This document shows, piece by piece, positions 4,200 to 60,700 of a DNA stretch of 64,000 bases (positions are counted from its first letter, which is position 1; every line of letters begins with the position of its first letter). The DNA is from Brienomyrus brachyistius (Eukaryota; Chordata; Actinopteri; Osteoglossiformes; Mormyridae). The notes beneath the pieces were generated by a model. It saw only the letters and a list, made by a program, of their open reading frames with translations. It was not told where the DNA came from and searched no databases. The position numbers were made by a program, and so were the translations under genes. The DNA is taken from contig NW_026042421.1 in NCBI RefSeq assembly GCF_023856365.1, positions 88,501 through 152,500 on the forward strand, read 5' to 3'.

Positions 4200-4512
4200 A
4201 CACACACACACACATAGGGTATACCTATCTTTATGGGGCCCGCTCATTCACTTCTATGGGATAAATGCTAACGCTAACTATGACAAGCTTAACCCCCACC
4301 CTGCCCTAACCATAACCATAAGTAACCCAGCAAAATACAAGAGGTTTTGCATTTTTAGTTTTTCCATAGCAGTCACAGATTTTTATAAAATAGAGTTTTC
4401 CTGGTTTTCGGTTTCGTGGTCCCCATAAGGGAAAAAAAACAGGTATTTATCACGTTATGGGGTAGGATAGGTATACCCGCTCGCACACACACACACACAC
4501 ACACACACATGC
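4200..4512 (+). repeat. Dispersed 'tggggac/CA-tail' fish repeat
   Basis: CA repeats at both ends (4,200-4,214 and 4,485-4,510) flank TATACCTATCTTTATGGGG and GTGGTCCCCATAAGG. Related segments with TGGGGACC and CCCCATAA phrases occur at 42,565-42,860 and 57,270-57,375, and inside each 477-bp unit at 50.1-53.5 kb. Confidence 0.65.
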
Positions 4513-4867
4513 ACACAAATGGATAGATCAACACAGTTACTATGGATGTCGATCCTGCAATAATGAGACAGAACTATCATACTTAATAGGATCATATCCC
4601 TAGTTCTACATATGCATAATTATATTTTAAAAAGATCCCACGCACCCAGCACATGAGATGTTTGAACTTCTGCTCTCTGGTAAACGTTACCGCAGTATGC
4701 ATTGCAAAAAAACAGATTTAATAAGACCTTCTACCCCAAAGCCATCAGAATACTAAATGCTAATGAACATAAGTTTATGTGAAACCCTACTCTCTCTTCC
4801 TCTCTGTGCACTTTATTACCACAACTGGTATTAAGTTTACTTTTTATTTATACAGTATAGTGCAATA

Positions 4868-5237: not shown

Positions 5238-6021
5238 TGAGTCCGGCTTCCACTCCCCCGATTCCCAGCAATGTTAACTTGGAAGGGCGTGTTCTGTATG
5301 CACAACTGAGACAACCCAGGTGGAGCTCAGCTTATCGGCTGGCAAAATTGCCTTCAGGTATCACCCACCCTAGTGAGAGTCCAAGCTAGGGCTGTTCTCA
5401 GAACTCACCCTAAACGAGGTCCTGCTCAAAAGTTGTAATGACCGCCTGAGGTACCTGTGAGCCTTGCCCGTAATGAGTCAGTGGGTGTAGCCGAGCTGAC
5501 ACGCTTTTGGGCGTCCAATTGCTGAGAACTCCCCTTCGGTTTTGACAAACTGTACGATCGCAAGCAGTGACAGCAGAGCCACAGACAAGCTCAACCAGCA
5601 GAGAGCGAATGGTAAGCACCCAACACCCGAAGGGCTCAACTGATCACATCCAAACGACTTCCTGATGGGATTGTGTACGTAACTGGTTTACTGTTGTTAA
5701 TAGTGGTTGAACTTCTATGCAAGTCCCCTTGTTGGGGGAGAGGGAATGAATGAAAGCATAAGGTGAAATAAAACCTAAAATAAATCAAAAAGGTTAAACA
5801 GAAATCAAACCAAATGAATTGTGTTTCTTCTTCAATTGTAAACATAAATTAGTTATGCAACAATAACCTAATTGGATGTTAATGTATTGTGATCAAATTG
5901 ATTTAGTCCATGAAGTTAATTCCTGCTTTCAGGCAAGAACGTGTGTGTCCAATTATGCGTGTTGTATCACCGCAGTTGACCACCAGAGACCCAACTCAGA
6001 TGTTGTTAACCTACTATGGCG
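5238..6021. other. Unassigned sequence between LINE fragment and minisatellite
   Basis: No coding signal or named repeat is recognised. It lies between two copies of the same LINE piece (5,018-5,237 and 7,735-8,232), so it may be part of a larger retroelement or a later insertion. Confidence 0.35.
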
Positions 6022-6675
6022 GACCACTAGAGGTGCAATTTCAATGGAGTGGCACTGCTATGGCTTGCCACTAGAAGCGCAATTTCAAAATGGAGTGGTA
6101 GTTCTATGCCTGACCATCAGGGGAGCAATATCGAAATGGGGTCGTAGTTCTATGCCTGACCACTGGAGGCGCGATTTCGAAATGGAGTGGTAGTTCTATG
6201 CCTGACCACTAGAGGCGCAATTTCGAACTGGAGTGGTAGTTCTATGCCTGACCACTAGGGGCGCAATATCGAAATGGAGTGGTAGTTCTATGCCTGACCA
6301 CCGGGGGCGCAATATCGAAATGGAGTGGTAGTTCTATGCCTGACCACTAGAGGCGCGATTTCGAAATGGAGTGTTAGTTCTATGCCTGACCACTAGAGGC
6401 GCAATTTCGAAATGGAGTGGTAGTTCTATGCCTGACCACCGGGGGCGCAATATCGAAATGGAGTGGTAGTTCTATGCCTGACCACCGGGGGCGCAATATC
6501 GAAATGGAGTGGTAGTTCTATGCCTGACCACCGGGGGCGCAATATTGAAATGGAGTGGTAGTTCTATGCCTGACCACCGGGGGCGCAATATCGAAATGGA
6601 GTGGTAGTTCTATGCCTGGCCACTGGAGGCGCAATTTCGAAATGGAGTGGAAGTTCTATGCCTGACCACTAGAGG
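6022..6675 (+). repeat. 46-bp minisatellite, about 14 copies
   Basis: The unit begins GACCACTAGAGGCGCAATTT or GACCACCGGGGGCGCAATAT and ends GTGGTAGTTCTATGCCT, repeating every 46 bp. Two main variants alternate irregularly (CTAGAGGCG... and CCGGGGGCG...). The leftmost two units are the most diverged. The core CCACTAGAGGCGC resembles, imperfectly, a CTCF half-core. Confidence 0.92.
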
Positions 6676-15230: not shown

Positions 15231-15236
15231 AAAATT

Positions 15237-16483
15237 GGTTCAGATAGGCGACGGACAATCTGATTGGCTCAGATAGGCGACGGACAATCTGATTGGCTCA
15301 GATAGGCGACGGACAATCTGATTGGCTCAGATAGGCGACGGACAATCTGATTGGCTCAGACAGGCGACGGACAATCTGATTGGCTCAGACAGGCGACGGA
15401 CAATCTGATTGGCTCAGACAGGCGACGGACAATCTGATTGGCTCAGACAGGCGACGGACAATCTGATTGGCTCAGACAGGCGACGGACAATCTGATTGGC
15501 TCAGACAGGCGACGGACAATCTGATTGGCTCAGACAGGCGACGGACAATCTGATTGGCTCAGACAGGCGACGGACAATCTGATTGGCTCAGACAGGCGAC
15601 GGACAATCTGATTGGCTCAGACAGGCGACGGACAATCTGATTGGCTCAGACAGGCGACGGACAATCTGATTGGCTCAGACAGGCGACGGACAATCTGATT
15701 GGCTCAGACAGGCGACGGACAATCTGATTGGCTCAGACAGGCGACGGACAATCTGATTGGCTCAGACAGGCGACGGACAATCTGATTGGCTCAGACAGGC
15801 GACGGACAATCTGATTGGCTCAGACAGGCGACGGACAATCTGATTGGCTCAGACAGGCGACGGACAATCTGATTGGCTCAGACAGGCGACGGACAATCTG
15901 ATTGGCTCAGACAGGCGACGGACAATCTGATTGGCTCAGACAGGCGACGGACAATCTGATTGGCTCAGACAGGCGACGGACAATCTGATTGGCTCAGACA
16001 GGCGACGGACAATCTGATTGGCTCAGACAGGCGACGGACAATCTGATTGGCTCAGACAGGCGACGGACAATCTGATTGGCTCAGACAGGCGACGGACAAT
16101 CTGATTGGCTCAGACAGGCGACGGACAATCTGATTGGCTCAGACAGGCGACGGACAATCTGATTGGCTCAGACAGGCGACGGACAATCTGATTGGCTCAG
16201 ACAGGCGACGGACAATCTGATTGGCTCAGACAGGCGACGGACAATCTGATTGGCTCAGACAGGCGACGGACAATCTGATTGGCTCAGACAGGCGACGGAC
16301 AATCTGATTGGCTCAGACAGGCGACGGACAATCTGATTGGCTCAGACAGGCGACGGACAATCTGATTGGCTCAGATAGGCGACGGACAATCTGATTGGCT
16401 CAGATAGGCGACGGACAATCTGATTGGCTCAGACAGGCGACGGACAATCTGATTGGCTCAGACAGGCGACGGACAATCTGATT
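15237..16483 (+). repeat. 29-bp satellite, left arm, exactly 43 units
   Basis: The unit starts GGCTCAGACAGGCGACGGAC and ends AATCTGATT (29 bp), so the arm is 43 x 29 = 1,247 bp. The first four units and two near 16,370-16,405 have GATAGG; nearly all others have GACAGG. Each unit carries ATTGG (CCAAT box on the other strand) within CTGATTGGCT. It meets its inverted partner at 16,483/16,484 with a perfect 14-bp stem and a one-base loop. Confidence 0.98.
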
Positions 16484-26660
<10,177 letters not shown>

Positions 26661-42299: not shown

Positions 42300-42563
<264 letters not shown>

Positions 42564-42564
42564 T

Positions 42565-42900
42565 GGTTTCCATGTTGTATGGGGACCAGCTTTTTGATCA
42601 TCACTTGCGGGGACCACCCTTTCTACAGGTTCTAGAAATAAGAAAAAAATCAGGCATACTAACCATAGCTTTGTTAGCTTATACACGACTTCAAATATCT
42701 GAATTGATGAAGTAATATTTTGACCAAACTCTATGGGGACTTATGAAAAATCTGGTGAATATCACTAATGGGGACCTCATTTACATAGTATTTGCATTAT
42801 TCACACAAATTCCAATATATTTAGTGGGGACCTGATTTGCATAATTCACACAAATTCCTCCTTGATTAGTGGGGACATTGCAACTATAATTGTTACTAAT
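42565..42900 (+). repeat. Dispersed 'tggggac' fish repeat
   Basis: The phrases GTATGGGGACCAGC, GCGGGGACCACC, ATGGGGACCTCATTTACATA, GTGGGGACCTGATTTGCATA and GTGGGGACATTGCAAC recur. It is directly attached to the CA microsatellite, as in the 4.2 kb and 57.3 kb copies. Confidence 0.7.
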
Positions 42901-43544
42901 TGATGAGCACCTATATGAAGGCAATCCTCAGATAAATTATTATATTATATATGCATATGCATTCAACACACATCACAATGTTTTTCTCCTTTCACTCTAC
43001 AGTCAATTGTTATATGTTTCCAGCCATGTATTTTATACATACTGAAATTAAACGCCAAATGTTTGTGGTAAGTAAACCGTGTTCCTCCAACACATCAGCA
43101 TAGACAAAGTTTTCCTCAGTCTCGTGTAACCCTGAAGTTTCCTCTGAGTGATTAATCATATTAAATAACTGTCCAAAATAATAGTTAAGACATTTAGTTA
43201 TGACTGAAAACCTAGGGTTGTTAAGAATATCAGTGTGATTGAAGTGAACATTAATAGGTGAAGCAGTTAAAGGCTACATTCACTTACAAAGGATCAGACC
43301 CAAAGAAGTCAAACCTTTAAACCTTTACTTGCCAGTTTTACAGCCATTCTAAATATTTTTTAACCAGTCAACCATCCAGCATCAGCTATCTACTACTCAA
43401 TCACAGTACTGTGAAATATTTTAGCTACTCATAGTAAGAAATTATAAATACTTAATTGCTATGTTTCTCTAACAAATGAGGAGTTCTTTTGTGTCCTCTG
43501 TCCTATTGTTTAACTGTAGGCAATTAAAAATATTTATACTACGG

Positions 43545-43985
43545 GACCGTTGAATGCTTGAATCTGATTGGCTGACGAACGTTCTGAGGTGTGCAATTAT
43601 TTTCAGATAAACGAACGGCGAATGTAGTTCCAGGTAGCTCTCTTGACCGCATTACAGTTCCATATCACTTCGCATAGTTAACTGTAATAACGGAAATTAG
43701 CATACAGTACCTATATAGCACACAGGACTAACAAAAACAACAACATGACAGATGCGGAAGAAATAATCCTACTCACAATAGCGATTTAAGTAGAAAAACC
43801 GGACGAATCCCTTGAAATATATCATCTGATCGATGTCTTGAGGTGTGGCAACCGTAGTATAAGCGGAATAATTGACTCCGGACCGTTGAATTATTAGAAA
43901 ATAATGCACACCCAAGGTGGTAATGCGGCCACGACGCGAAGCGGAGAAATTATTTTCTAATAATTCAACGGTCAATTATTCCTTA
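43545..43985. mobile_element. MITE-like DNA element with strong terminal hairpin
   Basis: GGACCGTTGAATGCTTGAAT occurs near 43,546. GACCGTTGAATTATTAGAAA near 43,880 is mirrored by TTTCTAATAATTCAACGGTC at about 43,953-43,972. The last 95 bp can form a long hairpin. It is non-coding, in the 3' flank of the SET-recombinase fusion gene. Confidence 0.65.
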
Positions 43986-44655
43986 CATATTCTAAATCTA
44001 ACAAGTGTAAAAGTCAATGATTTAGCAAAACTCAATGGCAGGGTAAACACATCTGCATGGTTATTAACATACATCCCCCCAACCCCCCAGGCTCAAAAAA
44101 CTCTCTTTTGAAGGTCCCCATTATTGAATACAACATGTTGGTTTATTACATATTGTTGGGTGTAGAGAAGATTGGACTTCTGGTGGTAAATTCCACCACA
44201 CTTCCATTATAATAAGACACAGATTGAACTCCACACAACACGACACTGAACGCGACATTAACATTGCAAAATCTGCAACTTTTAATGAGTTCACCTTCAC
44301 AAACAAACTCATCAAATTAAGTCAAATGAATCTAAAGCAATCAAATTCCTGTTGCCTGATTTTTCAGATAGGCTTTCCTAATATAAAACAGAAACCTGTC
44401 AAAATCATTGGCATTTTTGGCTATTATTTTATATATATAACGTCAAACGGTCAAGAACTGCCATGACATTAAGCTTAAATTTAAACTACAAAATTTGCAA
44501 CTTTTTAGGAATTCAACTTCACAAACTCACCAAATGAAGTCAAATGAATCTAAAAGCAAATAAATTCCTGTTGACTGAGTTTTAAAACAGGAACCTTTCC
44601 AAATCACTGGCAAACGGAAACAAAAAGCCATACCAGAGAATTCGTAACTTTAACC

Positions 44656-47600
44656 CTATTTACGTTGAATTTCCCTTTTGTAGGCCGTGATGCGATTATA
44701 CACATAGAATTTCAAGTTCTCCCAGTTTCTTTGCTTAAGAGCTTCTGGTTCCGCTCTTAAACACCTCTCGCAATCGCTCTTTGCTGGCACAATACCAGAT
44801 ATGATGAACCGATTCATGTGCCTCTCCACTGCCTGCACCTCTGTCTGCTGCCAGGGTCTCTTCTTTTGGGTCACTTTACCTTAAAGTGGTAAGAAAAACT
44901 AATTAGTAATGCTGTAAATCAGATATAATTTGCTAAATTCTATATCAGCATACATGCAGCAAGTAAAATTCTTTGCATTTACCTAGGAATAGAATTATAT
45001 TGTCAAATTTTAAGAAGAAACAACAGTATGTATCTTCTTATGAACATTAAAGATCCACTAGATAAATCCATCTAGTATAGTATTAGTATTGTATATAGTG
45101 TGTATAGTAATTATATAAGACATTACAACCCTGATTTCAAAAAACTGGGATGCTGTGTAAAACATAAATAAAAACAGAATGCAACCGACATTCAACTGAA
45201 TACAAAAGAAAGGCTCAGTTCTTCACAAGCAAGGATAGCACAGTGGTTACCACTTGGTGTGTTAGCACTCATGGCATGTGAAAGTACCTTTAATGTTGAA
45301 TGCAAAATATGCCGCCATCCATATGATGTCTTTTTCAGAGACGTTATTGCTTATTCCAGCAAGACAATGCCAAGCCATATTCTGCACGTGTTACAACAGT
45401 GTGGCTTGCTGGTAAAAGAGCGCTGGATCTAAACTGGCCTGCCTGCAGACCACACCTGTCACCCTTTGAAAATGTGTGAAAATTATGAAACCCAAAATAC
45501 AACAACAGAGACCTTAGTTTGTTGAGCAACTGAAGTCATGTATCAAGTATGAATAGGAAAGAATTTCTTGTTCAAAACTTCAACAATTCCCAAAGGCTCA
45601 CTGAGTGTTGGTAAAAGAAAAGGTGATGTAATACAAAGGTAAACATGCCCCTGTCCCAACTTTTTTTAAGCATTTTGCAGGTATCAAAATCAGGTTCATC
45701 AGTATAAACACTAAATATTTTGTGTTTGTATTGTATTCAATTGAACATAGGTTGAGATTTGCAAATTATTGTATTCTGTTATTTATGGTTTACACAGAAT
45801 TATAATGTTTTTGGTATACTGTACAACCATCATACAAGTACTAATATGTACCGCTTTAGCTATATTAGCTTTGGTAACAAGAAAATTATATTAAAGCTAC
45901 TTGAAGTTGAGTTGCTTCTACATTATGAGTAATGCTGTAAGTTATCCAGTCATTCACACTGAATTGCTCCAGCACCCTGTGAACAGCCAGGACAGGTGGT
46001 TGATATAGGGGCTAGTTATTACTAATGTTTCATTTATTAGAACAGTTACTGTTACTAGTCCCACTTCAAGCAGCTTATAGAGTCGAGCAACAACCAATTA
46101 GCCCCATCAAATGGTACAGAGGGATTTCTGAGAATTGTGATTTTCAGACAGGGCAGAATAATGTAGAGCTGCTTGGGACAACAACAGTTTGGCAGCAAAG
46201 CATTCATTTAAAGCAATTTGGCTGCTACAACATTTAGCCATTTCTAGTTTAATTCAGACACTGACAGTACCTCCGCAAATACAAACAAAAGAGTAGAGAG
46301 TTCACCTTTGGATGAAGGCCTCACAGTACTGACTACTGACGGTGATGTATCATCTAATGGTAGTGGTTTATGTCTCTTGGACGGTGGTGGCGGCATTTCA
46401 TTCCTTTCGGTAGGAGGAAGTATCTCCTCTGCTGATGGTTCTGTGGAAAATAATCAACATTCAGAGCAGATGCTGGAGGTGGATGCAAATGCAGTAAACT
46501 ATTATTTTATTAAATATGCAGAAAAATCCAAAATATACAGCTGAATCATAGTCAGTAAACAGGCAGAGGCAGGCAAATCTCAAGAAACCAGAACCATGAT
46601 TAAAACCAGAGTGACAGGCTTGGTATCATTAGGTGCAAGATGCTAAGCATATACACCGATCAGGTATAACATTATGATCACTGACAGGTGAAGTGAACAA
46701 CACTGATTATCTCTTCATCATGGCACCTGATAGTGGATGGGATTTATTAGGCAGCAAGAGAACATTTTGTCCTCAAAGTTGATGTGTCAGAAGTAGGAAA
46801 AAAATGGGCAAGTTCAATGATTAGAGTGAGTTTGACAAGGGCCAATTCGTGATGTTATGTTTGATTATTATTTTTTTTTTTTATAATTGTAGCTTTCAAG
46901 TCCCAATTAATACGTCCATATGCCCCTGGCATTAGTTAGCTAAATAACAAATTCAATTAAAGCAATACTCTAATTAACTTATTTACTGACTTAAACTAGT
47001 GACAAAACATACCATCTATAATTGATGAATCTGCCTGACATTTCTCCTGGAAGTCTTCCTCATCACTGTCCAGAACTTTTTCTGTGGAAGTCATACGAAG
47101 TACAGCTTAACAACGTGATTAAACAAAAAGAATAGATAGCAAGCAGAAAAATAAACAAAAAAGTCAAATAACATACCATCTGGATCTATCTGAATTTCAT
47201 CCAAGTTCTTGCCATGAAACTCAGCTAATCTTCCCTGCTCGAGTGCCATTAGAACTTTGCTGATCTTTGCAAGTTGCAGGGTTTTCTCAGGGAGTCGATA
47301 GAACTCACGATGGATTCTAATGTCATGTCCAAGAAAGGTGGCCAGCTGGTCCATCTCTGTGTCTGTCATGTTCAGCACAGTTGAAAGGGTTGCAGCATGC
47401 TTTCGCAGTCTGGTAGATGTCAGTGATTCAGGACATTTTGCACCACACACCTTGGCAAATCCACGGATGCAATCAGAATCTCGGAAATGTGTGATAGCTT
47501 CTGGTCTCGCAAACATATACTGATTGTCCTTTAGTACCCCATAGGCCCCTCTCTGCTTAGCAAGGAGTTCTAATGCACACAGCATTTTTGGAGTCAATAG

Positions 47601-50600
47601 AATTGGAACTGGGCGACCACGTTTCCCCCTGGTGACAATCCGTGTAAAGTGTCTGTAAAGTTTTCTTTCCACTTCAGACAGAGCCCAGTCCACATCCTGA
47701 TGTGGATCAGAGGTGTCTCTCGATAAAAATGCAGATAAGGGCATGCTTGCCACCTCTCCTTCCCTGCGCCGGTTAAAGAGAATGATCTGGGTCATACACA
47801 CCTTTGTAAGCTCAATCCAGGCTTTTACAGAGGGATTTTCATAGAGCGATTTGTACCAGTTATCCTGCATTTCATTGAGATATGCATGCATTTTTTGGAC
47901 ATCTTCAGTAAAGGGCATGAGAGTGGGCACATTCCACTTTGCTTCACTGATGTTCCTCAATGCAGTAGCTGAGATCATCTCATTCCACTTTTGCTGATGG
48001 ACATCTAGAGACTTACTGGCATTCTCAACAAGCTCTTTGTTGTTTGAGATTAAACCCTGAGCTTTTAAAAGTTTACTTACTTTAACCAAGGCATTTCCAA
48101 GTTTGTTTGCCAGTGATGGAATTAAGAACTTGTTTGTTTCACTGTCATACCCACATGTAAACTTGACAGCTTTGACAGTGTCCATGTAGTTCTTTGGATT
48201 TATGAAATCTTCCAATTTTTTTAAGGTGGTCACTTTGCTGGCATTGTAAATCAGCCTTCCGATTTCTCTCATCTTCTCTCGAACATACTGTTGATTCTTG
48301 CGTGATGGTCCACCTTTGTTTAACAAGTGCTGTCCAAGAGCAATAATGACTTGGTCATTTTTGATTATATCTGTGACTGGGTCAGGATTCATGGCACCGA
48401 TTACTCCCCACAGTTGTTTACTTACGTGTGAAGGCACAGGCCCTGTGTATGTACACATGGACTGAACACGGTTCTTTCCTGGTTTGGAGGTGACTGATCC
48501 GGGTTTAAGTTTACAATTATGCATATGCCGCCAAAGAACCTTTCTTGTAAAAAGACCTTGACAATATGCACAGTGCATGAATTCCTTTCCCTGCACTTCT
48601 TTATGAGGTCGCCTAAATGGCACTAGTTCCCCCTTTCCTGACTCCATTACAGCAGCATTGTGAGCATAATTTCCTCTGTTACGAATATAATCTAGCTGTT
48701 TTTTCCTCTCCTTGGAACCCTTTGGAAAGCTTAGAGCTTTAGCTACATCAGGTTTATTTTCATGTGCACCTTCTAGATGCCTTGCGATCTTAGAATATGG
48801 TTTAGAGCAATACAAGCAATAGTGTTTCTTGTTGTAAATTCTATTCCCTCCTCTTTTTTTTAATGCCTTAACAACCATGATGTCATTTACATTCTGACTT
48901 GAAGAGGGTTCTTCTTCTGCTCCAGTGACTTCAGATGCAAGGTTGTGGTCATCATAAGTCATTTTGTCTGGGGTTGTCGAGTCACAGACTTGGGAACTCA
49001 CTGAACCAGAGACATCAAGCAAATCAAAAGACTGATTCTTGGTCCTTAGGTTTTGTTTAAAGCTGTATTCACTTCTACTGTCACTTTCACAAGTGGTATC
49101 TGGAATATAATCATCATTACTCCCTGATGTGGAATCATAAAGTTCATCAGAATTGTCAGGAACAGCGTCTTTCATCTAAAAATACAACAAAGTAATAATT
49201 ATTCGATCAGTAAATTGTCAGAAATGAATTCAGCTATTTTGATAATAAATTAATCATTGATTCAGTTTAATTTTTGCAGGTTTTGTAAGTGTGATAACGT
49301 TTCTTTTCACCATATTATTTTGGATTTTGGACAGCTGATTTAACAAAGACATCTGATGACATCTTAGGTTCAAAGAAAAAGTGATGCACATTTTTCACTT
49401 CTCTCTGGTATTTTATAGACCAAATAATTTATCAATTAAGAATATAATCCAATGAATAATTGATACTGAAAATAACTGTTGACTGAAACAAAGTCCCAGT
49501 TTAGTAAACATTTTTTTTTTGGAAAGAGAACTTACTTCAATACTTTTAGTCCGTCTGAGTCTTGGTACAAAAACCTCATCTTCATTGGCAATCTGTAAAT
49601 ACAAGCAACCATATAAACAATATTTGAAATAGTAGTTTCAATTACAAAGTATCCTCTAGGAATCTGTGGGGAAAAAAAGTCATCTGGGAACACAGTCTTT
49701 GGCACTATAATTAGTGAAATTAAAAATAAAGAAAAATCTGGAAAAAGAAACTTTTCTAAAATGCAATTTAAAATATGCAATTAAGAAAATTGAACTGAGA
49801 ATTGTTATGGCCAAAATATGTTGGCTGACCAACTTGATTGCATTATATAAATATAAACAAACTTTGAATTTGTTGCCTGCAAAACACACAAAAAAGGCTG
49901 ACAAAGATGGGTCATGTTTAACCACTTTGTGAAAGACTAACGTTAGAGATTTATCAAAAAGTACTGTGCAAAAAGAACATTTTTCAAAACAAGATAGCAC
50001 AATACAGAGCCCATAGAGAATTGTATGCTTCCAACTTTGTTTAAGGAAGAACCATATATTAGTGTGATTTTCAAGTGTTGACAAACTTTTCTCCATATAC
50101 TGTATGTTTAATGCATCATATGCTTTCTGGGGACATTCCACACACAGTGTTACTGTTCCTTATGGGGACCAGTTCTGCCCAATTTATCACAAACATTTTG
50201 TAGTCACACACCAACTGCAGGTGTGTTGTGGGGACGTCGTGAGTGCCTAGAATACAGTACTTATTACCAAAGATAATGATCCCAGTGAAAGCTAAAAGCT
50301 AACCCCTAAAGTAGAGAAACATAAAAAGAGACACTAGAATTCAATCTGAAGCGATGGACATGAATGTACCTGTTGAGGTGTGTTGTTTGGTTCAGTAGCA
50401 TCATATATCGGAGTCTTTGAGAGGAGGGAAGGTCGAGAGTCGTCCGACCCCATGGCATTAGCTGTAATGCTGGTCGTCTGAAAACACATTTATAATGACA
50501 AATTCAGATAATGAAAACACTGAAAACAAATTGTCAATTTCAAGTAAATATTCCATAACATGCAGACAGACAGACTGCGTGTACAGACAAAATCTACAAG

Positions 50601-53600
50601 AAAAGATGAGATGCATGCCGACAATCATCAGAGGAAAGAAAAAATCAAATTCATTGTAAAATATCTTTTTCTGCCCAGTCCAGCTCTGTCAGTGTTCACA
50701 CATCTTGAATGAAAGACGCTTTGTGGGGACATTCCACACACAGTGTTACTGTTCCTTATGGGGACCAGTTCTGCCCAATTTATCACAAACATTTTGTAGT
50801 CACACACCAACTGCAGGTGTGTTGTGGGGACGTCGTGAGTGCCTAGAATACAGTACTTATTACCAAAGATAACGATCCCAGTGAAAGCTAAAATCTCACC
50901 CCTAAAGTAGAGAAACATAAAAAGAGACACTAGAATTCAATCTGAAGCGATGGACATGAATGTACCTGTTGAGGTGTGTTGTTTGGTCCAGTAGCATCAT
51001 ATATCGGAGTCTTTGAGAGGAGGGAAGGTCGAGAGTCGTCCGGCCCCATGGCATTAGCAAAAGACAAAATCTACAAGAAAAGATGAGATGCATGCCGACA
51101 ATCATCAGAGGAAAGAAAAAATCAAATTCACTGTAAAATATCTTTTCCTGCCCAGTCCAGCTCTGTCAGTGTTCACACATCTTGAATGAAATATGCTTTG
51201 TGGGGACATTCCACACACAGTGTTACTGTTCCTTATGGGGACCAGTTCTGCCCAATTTATCACAAACATTTTGTAGTCACACACCAACTGCAGGTGTGTT
51301 GTGGGGACGTCGTGAGTGCCTAGAATACAGTACTTATTACCAAAGATAACGATCCCAGTGAAAGCTAAAATCTCACCCCTAAAGTAGAGAAACATAAAAA
51401 GAGACACTAGAATTCAATCTGAAGCGATGGACATGAATGTACCTGTTGAGGTGTGTTGTTTGGTCCAGTAGCATCATATATCGGAGTCTTTGAGAGGAGG
51501 GAAGGTCGAGAGTCGTCCGGCCCCATGGCATTAGCAAAAGACAAAATCTACAAGAAAAGATGAGATGCATGCCGACAATCATCAGAGGAAAGAAAAAATC
51601 AAATTCACTGTAAAATATCTTTTCCTGCCCAGTCCAGCTCTGTCAGTGTTCACACATCTTGAATGAAATATGCTTTATGGGGACATTCCACACACAGTGT
51701 TACTGTTCCTTATGGGGACCAGTTCTGCCCAATTTATCACAAACATTTTGTAGTCACACACCAACTGCAGGTGTGTTGTGGGGACGTCGTGAGTGCCTAG
51801 AATACAGTACTTATTACCAAAGATAACGATCCCAGTGAAAGCTAAAATCTCACCCCTAAAGTAGAGAAACATAAAAAGAGACACTAGAATTCAATCTGAA
51901 GCGATGGACATGAATGTACCTGTTGAGGTGTGTTGTTTGGTCCAGTAGCATCATATATCGGAGTCTTTGAGAGGAGGGAAGGTCGAGAGTCGTCCGGCCC
52001 CATGGCATTAGCAAAAGACAAAATCTACAAGAAAAGATGAGATGCATGCCGACAATCATCAGAGGAAAGAAAAAATCAAATTCACTGTAAAATATCTTTT
52101 CCTGCCCAGTCCAGCTCTGTCAGTGTTCACACATCTTGAATGAAATATGCTTTGTGGGGACATTCCACACACAGTGTTACTGTTCCTCATGGGGACCAGT
52201 TCTGCCCAATTTATCACAAACATTTTGTAGTCACACACCAACTGCAGGTGTGTTGTGGGGACGTCGTGAGTGCCTAGAATACAGTACTTATTACCAAAGA
52301 TAACGATCCCAGTGAAAGCTAAAAGCTAACCCCTAAAGTAGAGAAACATAAAAAGAGACACTAGAATTCAATCTGAAGCGATGGACATGAATGTACCTGT
52401 TGAGGTGTGTTGTTTGGTCCAGTAGCATCATATATCGGAGTCTTTGAGAGGAGGGAAGGTCGAGAGTCGTCCGGCCCCATGGCATTAGCAAAAGACAAAA
52501 TCTACAAGAAAAGATGAGATGCATGCCGACAATCATCAGAGGAAAGAAAAAATCAAATTCACTGTAAAATATCTTTTCCTGCCCAGTCCAGCTCTGTCAG
52601 TGTTCACACATCTTGAATGAAATATGCTTTGTGGGGACATTCCACACACAGTGTTACTGTTCCTTATGGGGACCAGTTCTGCCCAATTTATCACAAACAT
52701 TTTGTAGTCACACACCAACTGCAGGTGTGTTGTGGGGACGTCGTGAGTGCCTAGAATACAGTACTTATTACCAAAGATAACGATCCCAGTGAAAGCTAAA
52801 ATCTCACCCCTAAAGTAGAGAAACATAAAAAGAGACACTAGAATTCAATCTGAAGCGATGGACATGAATGTACCTGTTGAGGTGTGTTGTTTGGTTCAGT
52901 AGCATCATATATCGGAGTCTTTGAGAGGAGGGAAGGTCGAGAGTCGTTCGGCCCCATGGCATTAGCAAAAGACAAAATCTACAAGAAAAGATGAGATGCA
53001 TGCCGACAATCATCAGAGGAAAGAAAAAATCAAATTCATTGTAAAATATCTTTTTCTGCCCAGTCCAGCTCTGTCAGTGTTCACACATCTTGAATGAAAG
53101 ACGCTTTGTGGGGACATTCCACACACAGTGTTACTGTTCCTTATGGGGACCAGTTCTGCCCAATTTATCACAAACATTTTGTAGTCACACACCAACTGCA
53201 GGTGTGTTGTGGGGACGTCGTGAGTGCCTAGAATACAGTACTTATTACCAAAGATAACGATCCCAGTGAAAGCTAAAATCTCACCCCTAAAGTAGAGAAA
53301 CATAAAAAGAGACACTAGAATTCAATCTGAAGCGATGGACATGAATGTACCTGTTGAGGTGTGTTGTTTGGTCCAGTAGCATCATATATCGGAGTCTTTG
53401 ACAAGAGGGAAGGTTGAGAGTCGTCCGGCCCCATGGCATTAGCTGTAATGCTGGTCGCCTGAAAACACATTTATAATGACAAATAAAAAAAAATGAGATT
53501 TCACTATTCCAAATACATAATACAAAACTAAGTATTTGATACTTAACCAGGTGACTGGTTGGACACAATGGACCTGCTGGTGATTTTTTGTACTTTGCTC

Positions 53601-56600
53601 ATTCATCTACGCCTTTAAATGGACTGAATGGACTCCTCTAAATTTATATTAGCAGCTGTTTTTTCAACCAAATGTAACATTTTTATTAAATAATTAGGAC
53701 TTGCATTTACTTCATTAGCTGTAATCTAGGCTGAAAATATTTTTCATATGACTATCAACATCACTAACTTTATTCAGATTGTAGGTAAATTTTCATAAAT
53801 AAAGGAACTAAACATTGGCCATATTTATTACTGGGTTCTTAAACACTGATCTTATCTAACAGCTTCTGAGAACATTAGCAACTTTGATTTGATTTTCTAG
53901 TGCCTCTTCCTCTGTTAGAAGATTGTCATTTATCTTAGAGGTTGATCATGGATTGCAGCTTCAGGTGATGCTAAGATAATTCTGATACTACTTGACTGAT
54001 TTTGTTTCTTTATGTATGTTCATTTTCATTCTTATTTTACCACGTCAGTTTTTTTTATTTAAATAGTGATAAATTTGATTAATATATACTCCATTCAATC
54101 ATAAGCCTTTCTCAAACATTCTGCAACACTACAATATATTCTGTACACTGTGTGACATACTTGTTTTCTCCATGGGCAGTCGTCACCTCCATAGTCATAG
54201 GAAATCTCTTCTCCTTCATTAATGTCATTTAGTGCAAACAGACAAAGGTGCGGGTTTCCATTCACATCAATTTTTTTCATCCTACAGTTTGGATGCCTGT
54301 GGTCATCATTAACTAGCCGCCCAAAGGATCCATCTTCTTTAGAGGCATCAATACTTAAAAAGATGGTAACATGAGAAAACAGGAAATAAAAATATAACAA
54401 TATATCACCACAAGATCAGAGTTTCTATTAATTTAGTATAAGGAGTATTATTTGCAAATTGAAGTCTTACCAATACATTTTCCCTCTCCACTTGAACGCA
54501 AACATAAATGCAGTACATGATGGGTGGTAAAGTTTTCTTCTTCTCTGGGATTCCGCATTATTTATCATTTCTCCCCTATATTCAACAACAAAATCTCCTT
54601 TGCAAATCAAACCCTTTGCAAATATACCACGGCCTGTAATAGACAACAAAACCATTTTTAATAAAATAGGAAAACCTATGCATTCTACCATTATCCAATT
54701 AGCCCTGGTCATGTGTTCAGGTCTGGGAAACCCGTTTTTAATGTTTTGTAAAAGAATCAATTATAATTTCAACCTAACACTCGCTGGCCTTGGTGAGTGT
54801 GTAAAATGTATATAAATGGGCTCATCGGTCATATACATGAACCTATTATGTGTATAAATTACCAAATCTTGCAGATAATTCATGCCAATTACACAAAAAC
54901 TGACCTTGACAGATGGTACCTCATGATACCCTAAAGTTTGCATTAGATGCTGATCAGATAATGATACAATCATTATCTGATCAGCATCTAGTGCAAAGCT
55001 TCAGTTTTGCATGCAAGTAATTATTAACTGAAAAATCATGTCAGACATCACCTTACCTTTCTCTGCATTGATGTACTTCACATCTAATTTCCATGTTTTG
55101 TCAGTCTTTGAAACAACGTAATGAATGGCATCCTTAAGTGGGCTGATTCGTGGTGGCATTTCAAACTGCTAGGAAATTATTAAAAATTAGTTTGACAGAT
55201 CTCGAATCGTAACTGAAAAGTTATTAACTAAATAGTATTTTTTTATTAGTTCTTATGTTCAGATACATCAAAAGCATACTTTCAAGATTTATCACTCTCT
55301 CAGGCTACCACTTCTGAAAATCCTTTAAATAACTGACGAAACTCAACTGTAAACCAAAATGGGGAACCTGATATTGTGTGGTACTAAAAAAAATGTCACT
55401 GTAGCCTAAATGTCTTATGGGGTTGTTTACCTTGCAGAATGGTAAATATACACCTTCGCCTTGAGGAATAGATATGTTCCCCGTTTTCCTGTACTCTGTC
55501 CTTTACTGCTAGTATAACCCAGCTCCTCTCTTACCATGCGCAAAGTTAGATGAGACCCTATCTTTCCAATACCCATCCATCCATCCATTACCATAATCTG
55601 CACTGGAGTCGCAGGGGGGACACAGACGGGGACCAACCCTGGGTGGGCGCCAACACACCACACAACTACAGGGCCAATTTAGACGCACCAACCAGCCTAC
55701 CCTGCACGCCTTTGGACTGTGGGAGAAAACCGGAGCCCCTAGATAACCCAAGCAAACATGGGGAGAGCGTGCGAGCTCCACACAGAACGGACCCGGAATC
55801 GAACCCAGGACCTTCTTGCTGCAAGGCAGCAGCACTAAACACTGCACCCTCTTTCCAACATATAGAAGTGAAATAAACTATATGTTTATTTCTTAAACAT
55901 ATACCTTCTATATATATTCTATACCTTCTTTTTTAGATGCAACATTAATTATGAACCTGACTGGTTCATAACACAGGACAGGCAACTGCAGGATTTTTCT
56001 TTTAAAACCGCATTGCATCGATCTTCTATACCAGTACATACACTGTCCATCTTCTATTCGAGCTCGTATAGCGTCCATCATATGTCTACATTATATTATA
56101 CTGAGTAACTGCGTGATGCAGACGTGCAGTAAGCAAGGGGTTGCAGAACATATCTTCTTTATTCTGCTCAATTTACATACCGGTTTAAGAACATACTATG
56201 CGTGCATGCTAATGACTGTTCTAATAAACCGTTCTACAGACTTATCACGTCTCAGCCGAAGTGTTTCGAGAATCAGATTAAAAGGAGCATCGATACATCA
56301 AACCACCGTGAAGCGCTTTAAAGATTACCAGTAGTACTACTACTACTATTACTACTACTAATAATAATAGGAACTAGGGAACTGTGCTTGGCCCAGGAAA
56401 CTGTGCACCAATATCCTCCAAAGAGGCTGAACCCGTCACTCACACCGATGACAATTTTCGCTCGATTTTTTGGGAAACCGAAAATGGCTATCAGCTAACT
56501 ACATTACATGAAGCTAGTTAGATATGTGGGTATTACACTAAGCATTCACACGCCAGCTACAGGACCCAATTTAATATATTAGTTTCGTCTTATTAACTTA

Positions 56601-56815
56601 ACCAATCTAGCACACTAGTAAATCTGATAAGGTGTATGTAAACTCAGCTGGCTAGTCAGCTAGCATTGTTATATATTATAAATAAGTATTAATTATAAAT
56701 AACGTATTAAAACACAAGAAATATAATCACAAACTTACCTTTCACTGTATTTGGTCGTGTAAAAGCAGTAGAATCTTCCTTTCGTCTATGTTTCTACTTC
56801 CCGTGGTGCTGAAAA
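44656..56815 (-). CDS. KMT5A-like SET domain fused to Crypton-type tyrosine-recombinase-like domain, 16 exons, about 1,227 aa
   Basis: Exons in transcript order: 5' UTR about 56,815-56,739; 55,168-55,057 (ATG at 55,159); 54,633-54,471; 54,353-54,161; seven repeat exons between 53,458 and 50,370; 49,592-49,536; 49,175-47,177; 47,081-47,013; 46,440-46,306; 44,879-44,656 (stop TAG). All phases agree and the CDS sums to 3,684 nt. Residues about 1-153 are a SET domain close to KMT5A/SET8, which monomethylates H4K20: EKGRGIFAKG, GDFVVEYRGEMIN, MYCIDASKEDGSFGRLVN, EEISYDYG. Residues 154-400 are seven copies of a 35-36-aa peptide. The 2-kb exon has two zinc-finger-like motifs (C-x2-C...H near 539-557; C-x2-C...H-x3-C near 621-640). 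It then has a YR-like core: NRRREGE, RGKRGRPVPILL, TSTRLRKHAATL, LGHDIRIHREFYR (candidate Tyr about residue 1,045). The end is basic (KRPWQQTEVQAVERHMNRF...YNRITAYKREIQRK). Start choice, expression and activity are inferred. Confidence 0.82.
45125..45805 (+). mobile_element. Tc1-like transposon remnant in the last intron of the fusion gene
   Basis: The ends ACAACCCTGATTTCAAAAAA (45,125) and the TTTATGGTTTACACAGAATT region near 45,785 match a widespread fish element. Positions about 45,352-45,480 encode FQQDNAKPYSARVTTVWLAG and LNWPACRPHLSPFENVW, the last catalytic block of Tc1/mariner transposases. Large internal deletions and stops make it inactive. Confidence 0.75.
46655..46865 (+). mobile_element. 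Tc1-like transposon 5' remnant in fusion-gene intron
   Basis: GATCAGGTATAACATTATGA, GTGAAGTGAACAACACTGAT and GGGCAAGTTCAATGATTAGA are the 5' part of a common fish Tc1-like element whose transposase starts with MGK. It is broken off by 46,865. Confidence 0.7.
50120..53482 (-). repeat. Seven-copy, 477-bp tandem repeat that multiplies one coding exon
   Basis: Exons (plus coordinates): 53,351-53,458 (108 nt), 52,874-52,978, 52,397-52,501, 51,920-52,024, 51,443-51,547, 50,966-51,070 (105 nt each) and 50,370-50,477 (108 nt). Spacing is exactly 477 bp except between the last two (596 bp). All are in phase 0 with donor CAG|gtacatt. The internal peptide has ILSFANAMGPDDSRPSLLSK then TPIYDATGPNNTPQQ. 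The outer copies start TTSITANAMG or ATSITANAMG. A few residues vary (GSDD, GPND, DATE, DSQP). The intronic part of each unit contains TTGTGGGGACATTCCACACA and ATGGGGACCAGTTC, related to the dispersed tggggac repeat. Units are almost identical, so the array is young. Confidence 0.93.
53483..54160. other. Intron between SET exons and the exon array
   Basis: AT-rich, with nothing recognised. Confidence 0.5.
55560..55860 (-). repeat. Dispersed fish repeat in 5' intron of the fusion gene
   Basis: Starts with (CATC)n and continues GTCGCAGGGGGGACACAGAC, TTTGGACTGTGGGAGAAAAC, CAAACATGGGGAGAGCGTGC and GGAATCGAACCCAGGACCTT. This is a very common teleost phrase series, here in reverse orientation. Confidence 0.8.
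56333..56370 (+). repeat. (TAC)n microsatellite
   Basis: Short TAC/TAA trinucleotide run. Confidence 0.8.
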
Positions 56816-57075
56816 CTCATTAATGGTCAGATAAAACTACACTTCGCCATAACGCAGCTCTCGTTTCACCATTTTAACAATTTTTTGAAAATATTAACAT
56901 AGCAGCCACTTTTTTACACACCTACATTTATTGTTTATTTAATCTTATTTATTTTACTCGAAAGATAAGTATTATAATTGCTTAATAGAACAAAACTTTA
57001 CGGTGCTCTTACCTCTCAAAGCTATTGCACATGCGCAAATCACGCAAACACCTCCGTTAAGTGGGCGGTACCGTG

Positions 57076-57083
57076 ATTTGCAT
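57076..57083 (+). promoter_or_regulatory. Octamer motif ATTTGCAT
   Basis: Perfect POU-factor octamer in a short GC-richer patch (57,020-57,160) that also has GCACATGCGCAAAT (NRF1-like) and GGGCGG. It could be a promoter fragment, but no transcript starting here was recognised. Confidence 0.3.
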
Positions 57084-57372
57084 AAATTAGGCTTGCAAAA
57101 TGTGTGTAAGGCTCGGCCAAGCCCCACCCCCAAAAAGTTCCGGTTCCTGACTACAGGTGGCAACATAGAGAATCCGTGTGAACCGTGTGATCCGATGAGG
57201 TCGTTCGTTATGGGCCTAAGCTAAAACTTTGTAAGGCACATATATACAGTCTCCCCAATATGTTTTAATGGTTTCCCTTATGGGGACCTAGATTTTTGTC
57301 CCCATAACGTTTTTGGTCCCCATAAGGTGACTGTGTATACAGATCAATGTCCCCATAAAGATAGGAATACCA

Positions 57373-57375
<3 letters not shown>

Positions 57376-57450
<75 letters not shown>
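57376..57450 (+). repeat. (AC)n microsatellite
   Basis: About 37 AC units followed by a short CT run. Confidence 0.95.
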
Positions 57451-57454
<4 letters not shown>

Positions 57455-57722
57455 TCTCTCTCTGAAGTGCTTTAAAAACCTAACGGATAAATTATTTTAT
57501 GTGCAAACTGGGAGGGGGCAACAAAAAGTCGCAAAACACACATGGAATCGATCCCCTCCCCCATCACAACCAACCCTCGGTGAACGAAACCAGAAAGTCA
57601 GTCATTGGCATCCCGGGTTCCGGACTTTGCTGAAATGCACGACCGGTGCGGGTTCTGGCGGGGGCTGACTGGGGGCAGGGGGGGTTGGCCTGGTGAGCAG
57701 CGCGGCAGTCGCCTTCCACGCA

Positions 57723-60700
57723 TCACGTCTGTGCCAGCTGCAGCTCCTCCAGGCCGTCTTTGCCCAGGTGGTAACGGGCCAGGTCCTTCCGCGTCACCAG
57801 TCCCACCACCTGGGCACCGGGAACATGATTGGTACGTAGAACAGGGCATAGATAGCTGGTTATGTTATGAGGGAGGGGTGGGAGTAGCACAGGAAACCAG
57901 GGTGATAACCTTGATCTAGATGGATGCCCAACGGCCACTGGCTGAAAACCGATGCAGTAATTTTCGAATTTTACAATGAGAATGGAGATATGTGCTGGAG
58001 ATGACGAAGGCCTGAGGACCTCGCAAGGCAGACGCACCTGGTTGTCACTGTCCACCACAATGAGGTGCCGCAGACCAAGGGCCCTGAACAGCTTGAAGAC
58101 ACGAGGAAGCGACGTCTCCTGAAAAAGAGGCAGAAGAACACAGTCGCAGAACATGACTGTTTAGTCAAATGTGTCTCTGGTTCTCAAGGACCAAGACCAA
58201 GGCTGAGACTGAGACTAGTACCTGCGTGACAGTGTAGGGGGTGGGATTCATGAACTCCGTCAGGTCCATCATGCACTCCCTCTCGTCTTGGGACACATGG
58301 ATGGACTGGATCGGAGGGAAGCGAGGGTAGGCATCCCGGAAGTCCTTCAGCTGCAGTTTGCGCAGATTGAGACGAGAACGAGCCCGTTCCACAAACACCT
58401 GGTTGAAAAGAGTACACCGGTCACAACGTGGATGAGCACACTTCTCATTGGCTTGCTGCACTGACATTCGCAACCGTGTACGCAGTAAACAGACCCCTCA
58501 TTGGTCAATCGCACTGCCAGTCACATCCAGGTATTCAATAATCAAACCCCTCATTGGTCAGCTGCACTGTCATTCACAGGCATGCATATACACCAAGCAC
58601 CCTGATAGGTGTTAGTGTGGACAGACATGCTCCTTATTCAGCTGACCTCTGCAGGAACCTTAGGTCACACTCACCTTGTGTTTCAGGAGCACGATAAGCT
58701 GGAAACGCAGGATTAAGCCACAGATTTTCCCTGGCTAAGAGCACAAAATTCAGATTAGCAAAGCCCCAAAGTACATCATGTGACAAATCTCCAGGAAAAC
58801 AAAATCACCCCTAGTGGGAGGGACATACCTCACAGCCATCACTCAACCCGGAGACTACAGGGAACCCGTTGTGATTGGTCGAGGTGTTGCTGAGCACATC
58901 CACAATAGTGCCCACTTTCTCCACCAGGTTGAAGCAGGTTACTGGAGAGCTCATAACCTCCCTGAATGGACAGACACACCAAACCTGAATATACAGTGAG
59001 AATGAAGCACCAATGTCTTGCTAAAGGCGTGTACTGGGCTCATTGAAGCATTAGCAGGGAAAATCCTGTAGGGGGCAATATACCTGGCAGTCAGGGAGTG
59101 GGAGGTGGCTGGGGCATCCCAGTGCAGGAAGGGCACACTCTGCAGCTTGATGTGGATGTCGTATAGCCCCTGTGGGAAAATTCGAGTCACTCAGAAGAGC
59201 TTAGGATCACATCTGCACAACATTCATAAGCTGCCACCCCTTGAAGTTTTACTTCCTCTAAGCAGATTTGCTGGCACATTGAGGAACAGAGAAGCAAAAC
59301 GAGCTGTCACAGCATGATGTGCCACCTTAAGTTAGACAGCTGTGCAAAAACAACGGAAGGGTTCTCAAAATCAGTCACTGGAAGGACAGATGAAAAAAAG
59401 ATGGCGTCAGACTGGTGGCTAGCTGCACCACCCACACCAAAAGCAAACATGAGACCGGAGCAGTTAACGAAACACGACTGGCCCGATTCCAAGTTCTGCA
59501 CGGTCTGAAAGGCGATGAGCTCATCACTCACTGACAGGCTCACACATAATGCCAAATGGACCAACCCGCTCCAACCCGAAACGTCAACACTGACCTCCAC
59601 GAAATAATCGCCCACGATCTTCGCCGTCATCAGAACCAGCATTATGGGTAGGCCGTAGGTGACATTTCCGGTGGCTTCCACCATGATGACAGTCAGGCTG
59701 AGGGTCATCCTCACGATCCCACCTGGCAAAGACCTTCGTAAACAGACGCAAACCCGAAGCCTCATGTGCCTCCATGCACCTCTAGACGAGCTCTGAAAAG
59801 CAGGCTGACCGCGGACGGACACTCACCAAGCTGGGCGGCGGCTCCAATCAGAGCGTACTTCCCAGGGTCGGCCAAGGTCTGTCAAACGAAACGCCACAAA
59901 TCATAAAACATGCTCATTCAAAAACTTCGAGGGGGCTTTACTTCCAACAAACATTATGTTAAACTACATCTATGCCGACATGACGCTGGGCGGCCCAGGA
60001 AATCGATACAGCACTAACCAATAGGGCACCTTCAAAGAGTCACGTGACTGCTTAAAGAGTAAATCTGATTGGACAACAAAGAGGAAATCAATCTAAAGCG
60101 GGTGTTGAAGGAGGCCCTCTGACTTCTAAAGACCCCGTTCAATTTCCTTAATATATCAAAACCTGCAGCGTTTCCATTAAAGTTCTGCACAAACAAGCAA
60201 ATTTGTTGACAAAGTGAAATTGCATAAAGGGTGTTTCCATTAAGTAACATCATGGAAACAACACCTGCAATTTATGATTCCGTGCCTCAACATGGATTGA
60301 GCTTTTCATGAGATACGAGCTCTAGAACCAAGTCATCGTGTCCTACACAGCAACAAGTTCGCAAAATCGGCTTCCATTTCAGTTTTGCGAATCGCCACAA
60401 AAACCACTTCAATCAAACTGAAAGCGTTTGAGGGCTTGTCCTCCTGAAATATAATCGTACCCATTAACGGATTTTCAGTTTTGCTTCTTCAAAATGTGCA
60501 AAAAAATCAAGGTCAGTGGAAAACGTCGCCACTGTGAGGTTTCTCTCTGCTGAGGGAAGAGTTCTGCTATCGTGACGGCCCCTCCTCCGCCAGCGGACCA
60601 CGCCGCCTCACCGGCTATACGGCGCTTCCCCAGGAACGGCGACCCGTCCTGATGTACCTGTATGGAATTGTGCGGCGTAATGGAGGCCAGCAAAATGCCA

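What the first reader, a model, noticed from the sequence alone, without database searches (positions are those of the whole stretch)
44656..56815. A SET8-like methyltransferase domain joined in one gene to a Crypton-type recombinase domain
Separate stretches of minus-strand coding sequence join with matching phase at every junction into one 3,684-nt CDS. The start resembles KMT5A. The middle and end resemble Crypton-type tyrosine recombinases, which have been domesticated several times in vertebrates (e.g. KIAA1958, QRICH1 and ZMYM families). A fusion of an H4K20-type writer with a DNA-binding recombinase fold could target methylation to specific DNA. It could instead be a mobile element that carries its own SET domain. 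I cannot tell from one copy whether the fusion is described elsewhere.
Basis: partly seen in the sequence, partly recalled or inferred. Interest (0 to 1): 0.85.

Follow-up and report, generated by a model that had tools for sequence, protein, structure and literature searches.

The report
Fish jumping gene with histone methyltransferase
This is a mobile DNA element from an electric fish that carries, in one predicted protein, a histone-methyltransferase-like domain and a recombinase-like domain, and that inserts itself into runs of CA repeats; it shows a chromatin-modifying type of enzyme built into a vertebrate jumping gene.

Summary
The observed gene is real: a 15-exon, 3,684-nt frame with matching phases encodes a KMT5A-type SET domain, a tandem-exon linker, zinc-finger-like motifs and a region with the tyrosine-recombinase (YR) signature. 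It belongs to a ~14.8-kb mobile element (window 42561-57375), not a single host gene. The genome, Brienomyrus brachyistius by protein matches, has 12 full-length copies, 99-100% identical over the recombinase exon. Copies end in (CA)n microsatellites on both sides. In 14 of 16 fetched copies of the window's amplified host locus the flanks are joined by a CA tract, i.e. the site is empty; other families of the same kind sit in that tract elsewhere. A SET match lies upstream of the recombinase in 43 of 59 loci, 40 of 45 long ones. Among the 120 listed hits, 119 carry SET, from 37 species (36 ray-finned fishes, one frog). A variant of one terminus occurs beside CA at 833 places. CryptonV targeting microsatellites and SET-carrying oomycete transposons are known; ten searches gave no report of this combination. 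YR homology, catalysis, mechanism and expression remain unproven.

The parts
42561..57375 (-). Whole element (about 14.8 kb), gene on minus strand, inserted in a (CA)n tract of an amplified host repeat
   Evidence: Homology between copies stops in (CA)n at both ends; empty sites
42447..42560 (.). (CA)n flanking the 3' (low) end of the element
   Evidence: boundary
57376..57454 (.). (CA)n flanking the 5' (high) end
   Evidence: boundary
42561..42960 (.). Low terminus, starts TACTGGTTTCC next to CA; six GGGGAC motifs in one orientation in 400 bp
   Evidence: terminus (pattern incl. CACACACA) found at 15 places in the genome, reversed control 0
56976..57375 (.). High terminus, imperfect inverted copy of the low end; one GGGGAC and three GTCCCC in 400 bp; variant shared with short non-autonomous elements
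55057..55159 (-). Exon 1, start codon (MPPRISPLKDAIHYVV...)
54471..54633 (-). Exon 2, first half of KMT5A-type SET domain (KGRG ... EYRG)
54161..54353 (-). Exon 3, second half of SET domain (GRLVNDD ... YDYGG)
50370..53458 (-). Seven tandem phase-0 exons of 35-36 aa each within a 477-bp repeat array; linker between SET and recombinase
   Evidence: repeated linker exons also in several other species
49536..49592 (-). Small linker exon (IANEDEVFVPRLRRTKSIE)
47177..49175 (-). Large exon: acidic region, two zinc-finger-like motifs, recombinase-like core
48762..48818 (-). First zinc-finger-like motif (CLYC...H...H); position computed from residue numbers
   Evidence: conserved columns
48513..48572 (-). 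Second zinc-finger-like motif (CAYC...H...C); position computed from residue numbers
   Evidence: conserved columns
47298..47771 (-). Tyrosine-recombinase signature: R677/R679, K726, R799, H825, Y834 (numbering of P0002)
47013..47081 (-). Acidic exon
46306..46440 (-). Proline-rich exon
44656..44879 (-). Last exon with conserved C-terminal domain (PWQQTEVQAVERHM ... KFYVYNRI), stop codon
   Evidence: matched in many homologues (104 of 110)

Best explanation
It is a recently active DNA transposon of the tyrosine-recombinase kind (Crypton-like, closest to CryptonV in target choice) whose single spliced gene encodes a KMT5A-type SET domain, a repeat linker, zinc-finger-like motifs, a YR-like core and a conserved C-terminal domain. 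Shown: discrete ends, dispersed near-identical copies, insertion inside (CA)n with no other change at the empty sites read, SET-YR pairing across families, purifying selection on SET between two families. Inferred: the gene product is one protein; the zinc fingers and recombinase bind the GGGGAC motifs near the ends; crossover takes place within (CA)n, which is both the element's own end and the target, so a circle closed through (CA)n can enter any CA microsatellite; the tethered SET domain methylates histone H4 (or another local protein) at donor or target chromatin and so helps expression, timing with replication, or access. Short elements with a related terminus use the same kind of machinery.
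For: 12 full-length copies 99-100% identical over the 1,997-bp recombinase exon on 6 contigs, recombinase frame without stops in these 12. Ends in (CA)n, flanks mostly unrelated. Empty sites: at C2:42436059-42436136 the two flanks of the C2:34.86M copy stand joined by 78 bp of CA; 14 of 16 fetched copies of the window's host locus are empty, 2 hold a family-4 end in the same tract, and C125 holds a family-3 element there. Families 2, 3 and 4, two copies each, also end in (CA)n on both sides, low end (CA)nTAC[TG][GC]G in all four families. SET upstream of YR on the same strand in 43 of 59 loci; none on the other strand within 15 kb; about 0.05 expected under uniform placement. SET and YR distances correlate, r=0.96, 21 proteins. 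SET exons of families 1 and 2: pS 0.77, pN 0.19. Head-to-tail pair sharing one CA tract. Ten other open frames of the element: no Pfam match at or above its curated cut-off.
Against: No transcript data. The YR homology is not significant by profile comparison (P=0.023 and 0.076 with two profiles; a decoy reached 0.034), and the usual His of the HxxR motif is Thr in 104 of 120 homologues. The NH of the KMT5A SET motif is ND in all 20 aligned members, so activity is not assured. 79 of 120 YR homologues show no SET match, a good part of them from short contigs. 16 of 59 YR loci have no SET hit upstream and none within 21 kb on either side among the hits; one of them, C58, lost SET exon 2 by deletion. 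The terminus patterns included CACACACA, so they do not measure how often such ends lie at CA. No circle, excision or methylation was observed.
Confidence: 0.85

Rival explanations
1. A host SET-recombinase fusion gene that was copied by segmental duplication, not a mobile element.
For: Multi-exon gene with conserved frame; one pair of copies (C2:39.64/39.73 Mb) has 100% identical flanks, i.e. segmental duplication, and several C2 copies share satellite-like flanks; the window lies in amplified host DNA.
Against: Homology stops in (CA)n at both ends, with unrelated flanks elsewhere; empty sites; different families in the same tract.
Confidence: 0.03
2. A mobile element in which the SET domain is catalytically dead and serves as a nucleosome-docking or protein-binding module.
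For: NH to ND change in all 20 aligned members.
Against: GRG, EYxG and YxY positions are kept in 12 of 12 SET+YR proteins with an intact YR set that I checked; strong constraint. Constraint alone does not separate catalysis from binding.
Confidence: 0.25
3. The SET domain and the recombinase are two neighbouring genes of one element, joined only by gene prediction.
For: No cDNA seen; many database proteins hold only one part (79 of 120; 200 SET-part hits in the 153-488 aa size class).
Against: All junction phases match and the linker exons are all phase 0; joined predictions in many species (119 of 120 listed hits carry SET; 107 of 110 new ones pass both length cuts).
Confidence: 0.1
4. The recombinase-like region is not a YR; another protein moves the element.
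For: No significant Pfam, PDB or profile match to a YR.
Against: R, K, R, H, Y in order, H to Y spacing as in lambda Int, each kept in 90 to 117 of 120 homologues; three DUF3504 frames from the same genome, a group derived from Crypton YRs in PMC3212892, score no better in the same test (P=0.019); no other Pfam domain found in ten further frames.
Confidence: 0.1

Closest known systems
CryptonV (Repbase; Kapitonov and Jurka 2012, cited in PMC8869645)
   Same: YR-encoding DNA transposon, some families inserted specifically in microsatellites (passage in PMC8869645)
   Different: The cited report is on cnidarians; I could not see its sequences or whether any encodes SET. Here: vertebrates, SET fused in the same predicted protein, imperfect inverted ends, related short elements
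CryptonA / CryptonI and DUF3504 genes (KIAA1958, QRICH1, ZMYM; PMC3212892)
   Same: YR-type DNA elements of animals; non-autonomous relatives reported as much more abundant than autonomous ones (passage)
   Different: No DUF3504 match here; the CryptonI copies compared there had no terminal repeats; 'methyltransferase' does not occur in that paper and 'set' only twice
HarbingerS and MuDR families of Phytophthora with SET genes (Kojima and Jurka 2014, cited in PMC12730594)
   Same: Transposons that carry a SET histone methyltransferase gene (passage)
   Different: Oomycete Harbinger and MuDR families (DDE transposases: recalled); here a YR-like recombinase, vertebrates, one fused predicted protein
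KMT5A / SET8 (H4K20 monomethyltransferase)
   Same: Closest solved SET domain, 99.9 bits over residues 30-145
   Different: ND replaces NH in all 20 aligned members; joined to a recombinase-like region; mobile
SETMAR (recalled, not from a call)
   Same: SET domain joined to a transposase-derived domain
   Different: A primate host gene made by one fusion with a mariner transposase; here the joined gene is the element's own and occurs in many species

Membership tests
Mobile DNA element | Dispersed copies with common ends and differing flanks | tested here: met
Mobile DNA element | Empty target sites | tested here: met
   (14 of 16 fetched host copies empty)
Crypton (YR DNA transposon) | Encodes a tyrosine recombinase | tested here: inconclusive
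   Motif order and conservation fit; no significant profile match
Crypton (YR DNA transposon) | No reverse transcriptase or DDE transposase in the element | tested here: met
   Pfam finds only SET at its cut-off in the protein and nothing at cut-off in ten other open frames of the element; frames under about 90 aa mostly not scanned
CryptonV | Insertion in microsatellites | tested here: met
   (CA)n in four families
CryptonV | YR sequence groups with CryptonV | not testable with these tools
   Repbase sequences not held
CryptonA / DUF3504 group | Match to PF12012 (DUF3504) | tested here: not met
   none of 44 homologues at E 0.1; 17 genome matches, none at a SET-YR locus; profile comparison P=0.67
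KMT5A-type SET methyltransferase | SET sequence closest to KMT5A | tested here: met
   (among solved structures)
KMT5A-type SET methyltransferase | NH of the SET core motif | tested here: not met
   ND in all 20 aligned members
KMT5A-type SET methyltransferase | H4K20 methylation activity | not testable with these tools
   needs an enzyme assay

The most novel reading that the evidence does not exclude
A so far undescribed lineage of vertebrate YR transposons has kept a built-in SET8-type histone methyltransferase across ray-finned fishes and at least one frog. It is the mobilising partner of abundant CA-microsatellite-bound short repeats, accounts for many 'KMT5A-like' gene predictions in fish, and was domesticated in carps into a gene with intact SET motifs and a recombinase without its catalytic tyrosine.
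Probability: 0.5. Interest if true: 0.88.

Novelty: new variant of a known kind. Interest (0 to 1): 0.78.

Why it matters
A transposon whose recombinase is joined to a histone methyltransferase makes a testable case of an element that modifies chromatin where it acts. Its target is the CA microsatellite, a common repeat, so the element may shape both microsatellites and the short repeats beside them. It also means that many fish genes annotated as KMT5A-like or set-1-like may be transposon pieces, which matters for gene-family counts and for claims about SET genes on sex or micro-chromosomes.

Tried and rejected
Host-gene reading: rejected on empty sites and termini. Viral relatives: one IMG/VR scan, none. 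DUF3504 and Phage_integrase families in the own genome: DUF3504 gave 17 exon matches, none at a SET-YR locus; Phage_integrase gave none. PHROGs: one of 24 members matched an integrase family, at 0.021. PDB search with the recombinase exon: one match at 0.54, a nuclear-receptor DNA-binding domain; the A3 profile also contained SET columns and the 60 rows shown were SET-domain chains. Profile comparison of the YR region with 9 integrases: right register with lambda Int but not significant (P 0.023); a deeper profile did not help (0.076; single integrases 0.0087 to 0.9; 14 decoys 0.034 to 0.96). A structure model could not be made. The expectation that this family itself gave rise to many short elements was only partly borne out: its low end occurs at 15 places, while the abundant short family has a variant of the high end at both its ends, so which family moves it is open. 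Link to the male-specific gibel carp gene setdm: only citations and one passing mention were seen in held papers; not tested. Rows dropped before counts: alignments of 300 bp or less, under 100 bp, 150 bp or less, 200 bp or less, under 220 residues and over 85% identity in the deep profile. In one search one further sequence with Cys (P0001, species not named) was left out of the carp count.
Full report
What was checked. NCBI predictions of the same architecture exist under LOC125717126, named as Brienomyrus brachyistius, on a contig whose length equals that of C2. Taxonomy: Mormyridae.

The parts. The first three exons encode a SET domain (PF00856 E=5.9e-20 in the joined protein P0002). Among solved structures the best 14 chains are KMT5A/SET8 (99.9 to 96.1 bits), the next has 67.8 bits. 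GRG, EYxG and YxY are kept; the NH pair of KMT5A is ND in all 20 aligned members. Then come seven tandem exons of 35-36 residues in a 477-bp repeat; repeated linker exons also occur in several other species. The large exon 47177-49175 has two zinc-finger-like motifs and a C-terminal half with the order R-R-K-R-H-Y (P0002 residues 677, 679, 726, 799, 825, 834). Over 120 homologues the counts are R677 116, R679 117, K726 107, R799 111, H825 110, Y834 90; where lambda Int has the His of HxxR, 104 have Thr. A profile of 43 rows aligned to a profile of 9 integrases puts the Lys loop, the box-II Arg, LGH and Tyr in register with lambda Int, P=0.023, against 0.36 for the reversed profile and 0.62 for the N-terminal half. 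With a deeper profile (67 sequences) P was 0.076, single integrases 0.0087 to 0.9, 14 decoys 0.034 to 0.96. So the YR assignment rests on motifs, not on significant homology. In the same test three DUF3504 frames from this genome, a group that PMC3212892 (abstract, outline, section 5 and passages seen) derives from Crypton YRs, reached only 0.019. Ten other open frames of the element gave no Pfam match at its cut-off.

It is a repeated, dispersed unit. The recombinase exon as DNA has 12 full-length matches at 99-100% on 6 contigs, three truncated ones at 95-98%, and rows of a second family at 66-76% (32 rows). As protein there are 71 matches; the 12 have no stop. Merged, these are 59 loci. In 43 a SET match lies 1.6 to 10.2 kb upstream on the same strand, in 40 of 45 among loci of 1.6 kb or more; none lies on the opposite strand within 15 kb, and about 0.05 pairs would be expected under uniform placement. 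The 16 others have no SET hit within 21 kb on any side. Both searches score only the best candidates, so these are lower bounds. The pairing holds in at least five groups of copies whose recombinases are about 45-57% identical to this one. One full-length copy without a SET match (C58) has lost a stretch that spans SET exon 2.

Ends and target. I fetched flanks for 10 of the other 11 full-length copies (C20 was not fetched). Homology stops in (CA)n at both sides. Apart from one segmental duplication (C2:39.64 and 39.73 Mb) and satellite-like flanks shared among several C2 copies, no flank similarity of 100 bp or more was found. Two copies at C2:42.4 Mb stand head to tail and share one CA tract. 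The ends read (CA)nTACTGGTTTCCATGTTGTATGGGGAC and, inward from the other side, (TG)nCGTTGGTATTCCTATCTTTATGGGGAC, an imperfect inverted pair. The low end occurs at 15 places, reversed control 0; the pattern included CACACACA. TGGGGAC in either orientation occurs 31 times in the 14,816-bp element and 7 times in the other 48,980 bases.

Empty sites. The two flanks of the copy at C2:34.86 Mb also occur joined by 78 bp of CA at C2:42436059-42436136. The window's own flank belongs to an amplified host repeat: 40 near-identical places were listed, 40 of 245 candidates having been scored. I fetched 16 of these at the insertion point: 14 have the two flanks joined by CA tracts, 38 to 178 bp between the anchors, in some with single TA or CT interruptions; 2 (C570, C558) hold a family-4 end in the same tract. 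C125 holds a family-3 element there, flanks 99.74% and 99.63% identical to the window's. Three families have thus entered the same microsatellite in different copies of one host repeat. Families 2, 3 and 4 end in (CA)n on both sides in the two copies compared of each, with the low end (CA)nTAC[TG][GC]G in all four families.

Short relatives. A looser search for the high end gave 62 places, 12 exact; the variant form gave 833 places with up to two mismatches, reversed control 0. These patterns demanded CACACACA on one side. Six copies were read: about 230-345 bp, the sequence in inverted orientation at both ends (altered at the left end of one), and a CA-rich tract also on the other, undemanded side in 6 of 6; their right ends are 88-95% identical to the element's high end over 52-99 bp, part of it CA. 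Which family moves them is open.

Age and constraint. SET exons of families 1 and 2 differ at 77% of synonymous and 19% of nonsynonymous sites, so the SET part has been kept by purifying selection (two loci of family 2, identical in this; in a third the second exon peptide was not found). SET and YR distances among 21 proteins correlate at r=0.96 (0 of 2,000 permutations reached it; shared descent of any kind would also give this). The 99-100% identity within the family and open frames point to recent activity.

Distribution. Of the 120 best YR homologues, 41 have a SET match in the same protein. With a frog SET-YR protein as query, 119 of the 120 listed hits carry PF00856 and come from 37 species, from Polypterus to Betta plus the frog Ranitomeya; 107 of the 110 new ones pass length cuts for both parts (one species, Amphiprion ocellaris, rests on a protein that fails a cut). 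A SET-part search returned 200 proteins, best 120 listed, with names such as KMT5A-A-like and set-1-like. A carp group (Labeo, Puntigrus, Sinocyclocheilus, Cyprinus, Carassius) lacks the catalytic Tyr in the 11 sequences checked (Cys 7, Phe 1, gap 3); of the 10 with a complete SET, 9 keep the motif positions and one reads GHG for GRG; 4 share an extra N-terminal stretch. Nine of them form one clade in the YR tree, support 1.00, but not firmly in the SET tree. Against it: the Tyr is also lost in other, scattered proteins (21 of 120 deviate at Tyr, Arg or His with all sites present), so plain decay is possible. This looks like domestication, from predicted models only.

How it most likely works. 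Shown: the unit moves, and it enters CA tracts. Inferred: recombinase and zinc fingers bind the GGGGAC motifs; strands are exchanged within CA, where element end and target are identical, so no separate target duplication is seen; a circle can enter a CA tract beside an older copy, giving the head-to-tail pair. The SET domain, tethered by a linker of variable length, is most simply a chromatin writer acting where the recombinase binds; H4K20 is the likeliest substrate from its KMT5A kinship. I give the SET-writer step about 0.4, a docking role about 0.25.

What is known. A passage in PMC8869645 says that some CryptonV families insert in microsatellites. A passage in PMC12730594 says that SET genes were taken up by HarbingerS and MuDR families of Phytophthora. 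Passages only were seen also of PMC4455052, PMC5753468, PMC9945428, PMC9004415, PMC8455134, PMC9406493, PMC8448357 and PMC6211105. Ten searches of the held papers gave no paper that I recognised as describing a SET-YR element; most hits were seen as listings only, and subscription papers and Repbase itself are not held. Hence new variant of a known kind, with the reservation that Repbase may hold fish entries.

Noticed in passing
57460-59500 and the window flanks: Host DNA of the window is an amplified repeat: 40 near-identical places listed (40 of 245 candidates scored), on many small contigs and near the ends of C22, C11 and C8, twice per contig about 174-179 kb apart in C96 and C114.
   Followed up: partly
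15234-17819: Two back-to-back 29-bp tandem arrays (43 and 46 copies) whose units are near reverse complements of each other, i.e. a very large inverted repeat (comparison by eye).
   Followed up: no
4200-4462, next to CA tract 4484-4517: A stretch 84% identical to the flank of a family-2 element and holding the TTATGGGGAC motif; probably one of the short non-autonomous elements.
   Followed up: partly
6014-6675: 46-bp tandem array, 14.4 copies.
   Followed up: no
57723-58497 (minus strand): Open frames that resemble part of a chloride channel gene of the CLCN6/7 kind (label recalled, from translations), just outside the element.
   Followed up: no
55560-55880: Sequence in the 5' part of the element that looks like a tRNA-derived fish SINE (recalled impression).
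   Followed up: no
Proteins P0044, P0047, P0049, P0050, P0053, P0063, P0067, P0073, P0086: Carp-group SET-YR proteins with SET motifs kept and no catalytic Tyr in the recombinase, four sequences with a shared N-terminal extension (P0044, P0049, P0053, P0073): candidate domesticated gene.
   Followed up: partly
Reference lists: A male-specific SET gene, setdm, on extra microchromosomes of gibel carp; C. gibelio has SET-YR proteins, so setdm may belong to this element family. Sequence not compared.
   Followed up: no
Names: Proteins matching this element family bear names such as KMT5A-A-like, set-1-like, rnf214, alpha-tectorin or PurQ in public annotation.
   Followed up: no
50585-53443: The 477-bp units of the linker-exon array also carry a TTATGGGGACC motif like those at the ends, one of seven altered; SET-YR spacing differs between copies, sometimes by 477 bp.
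   Followed up: no
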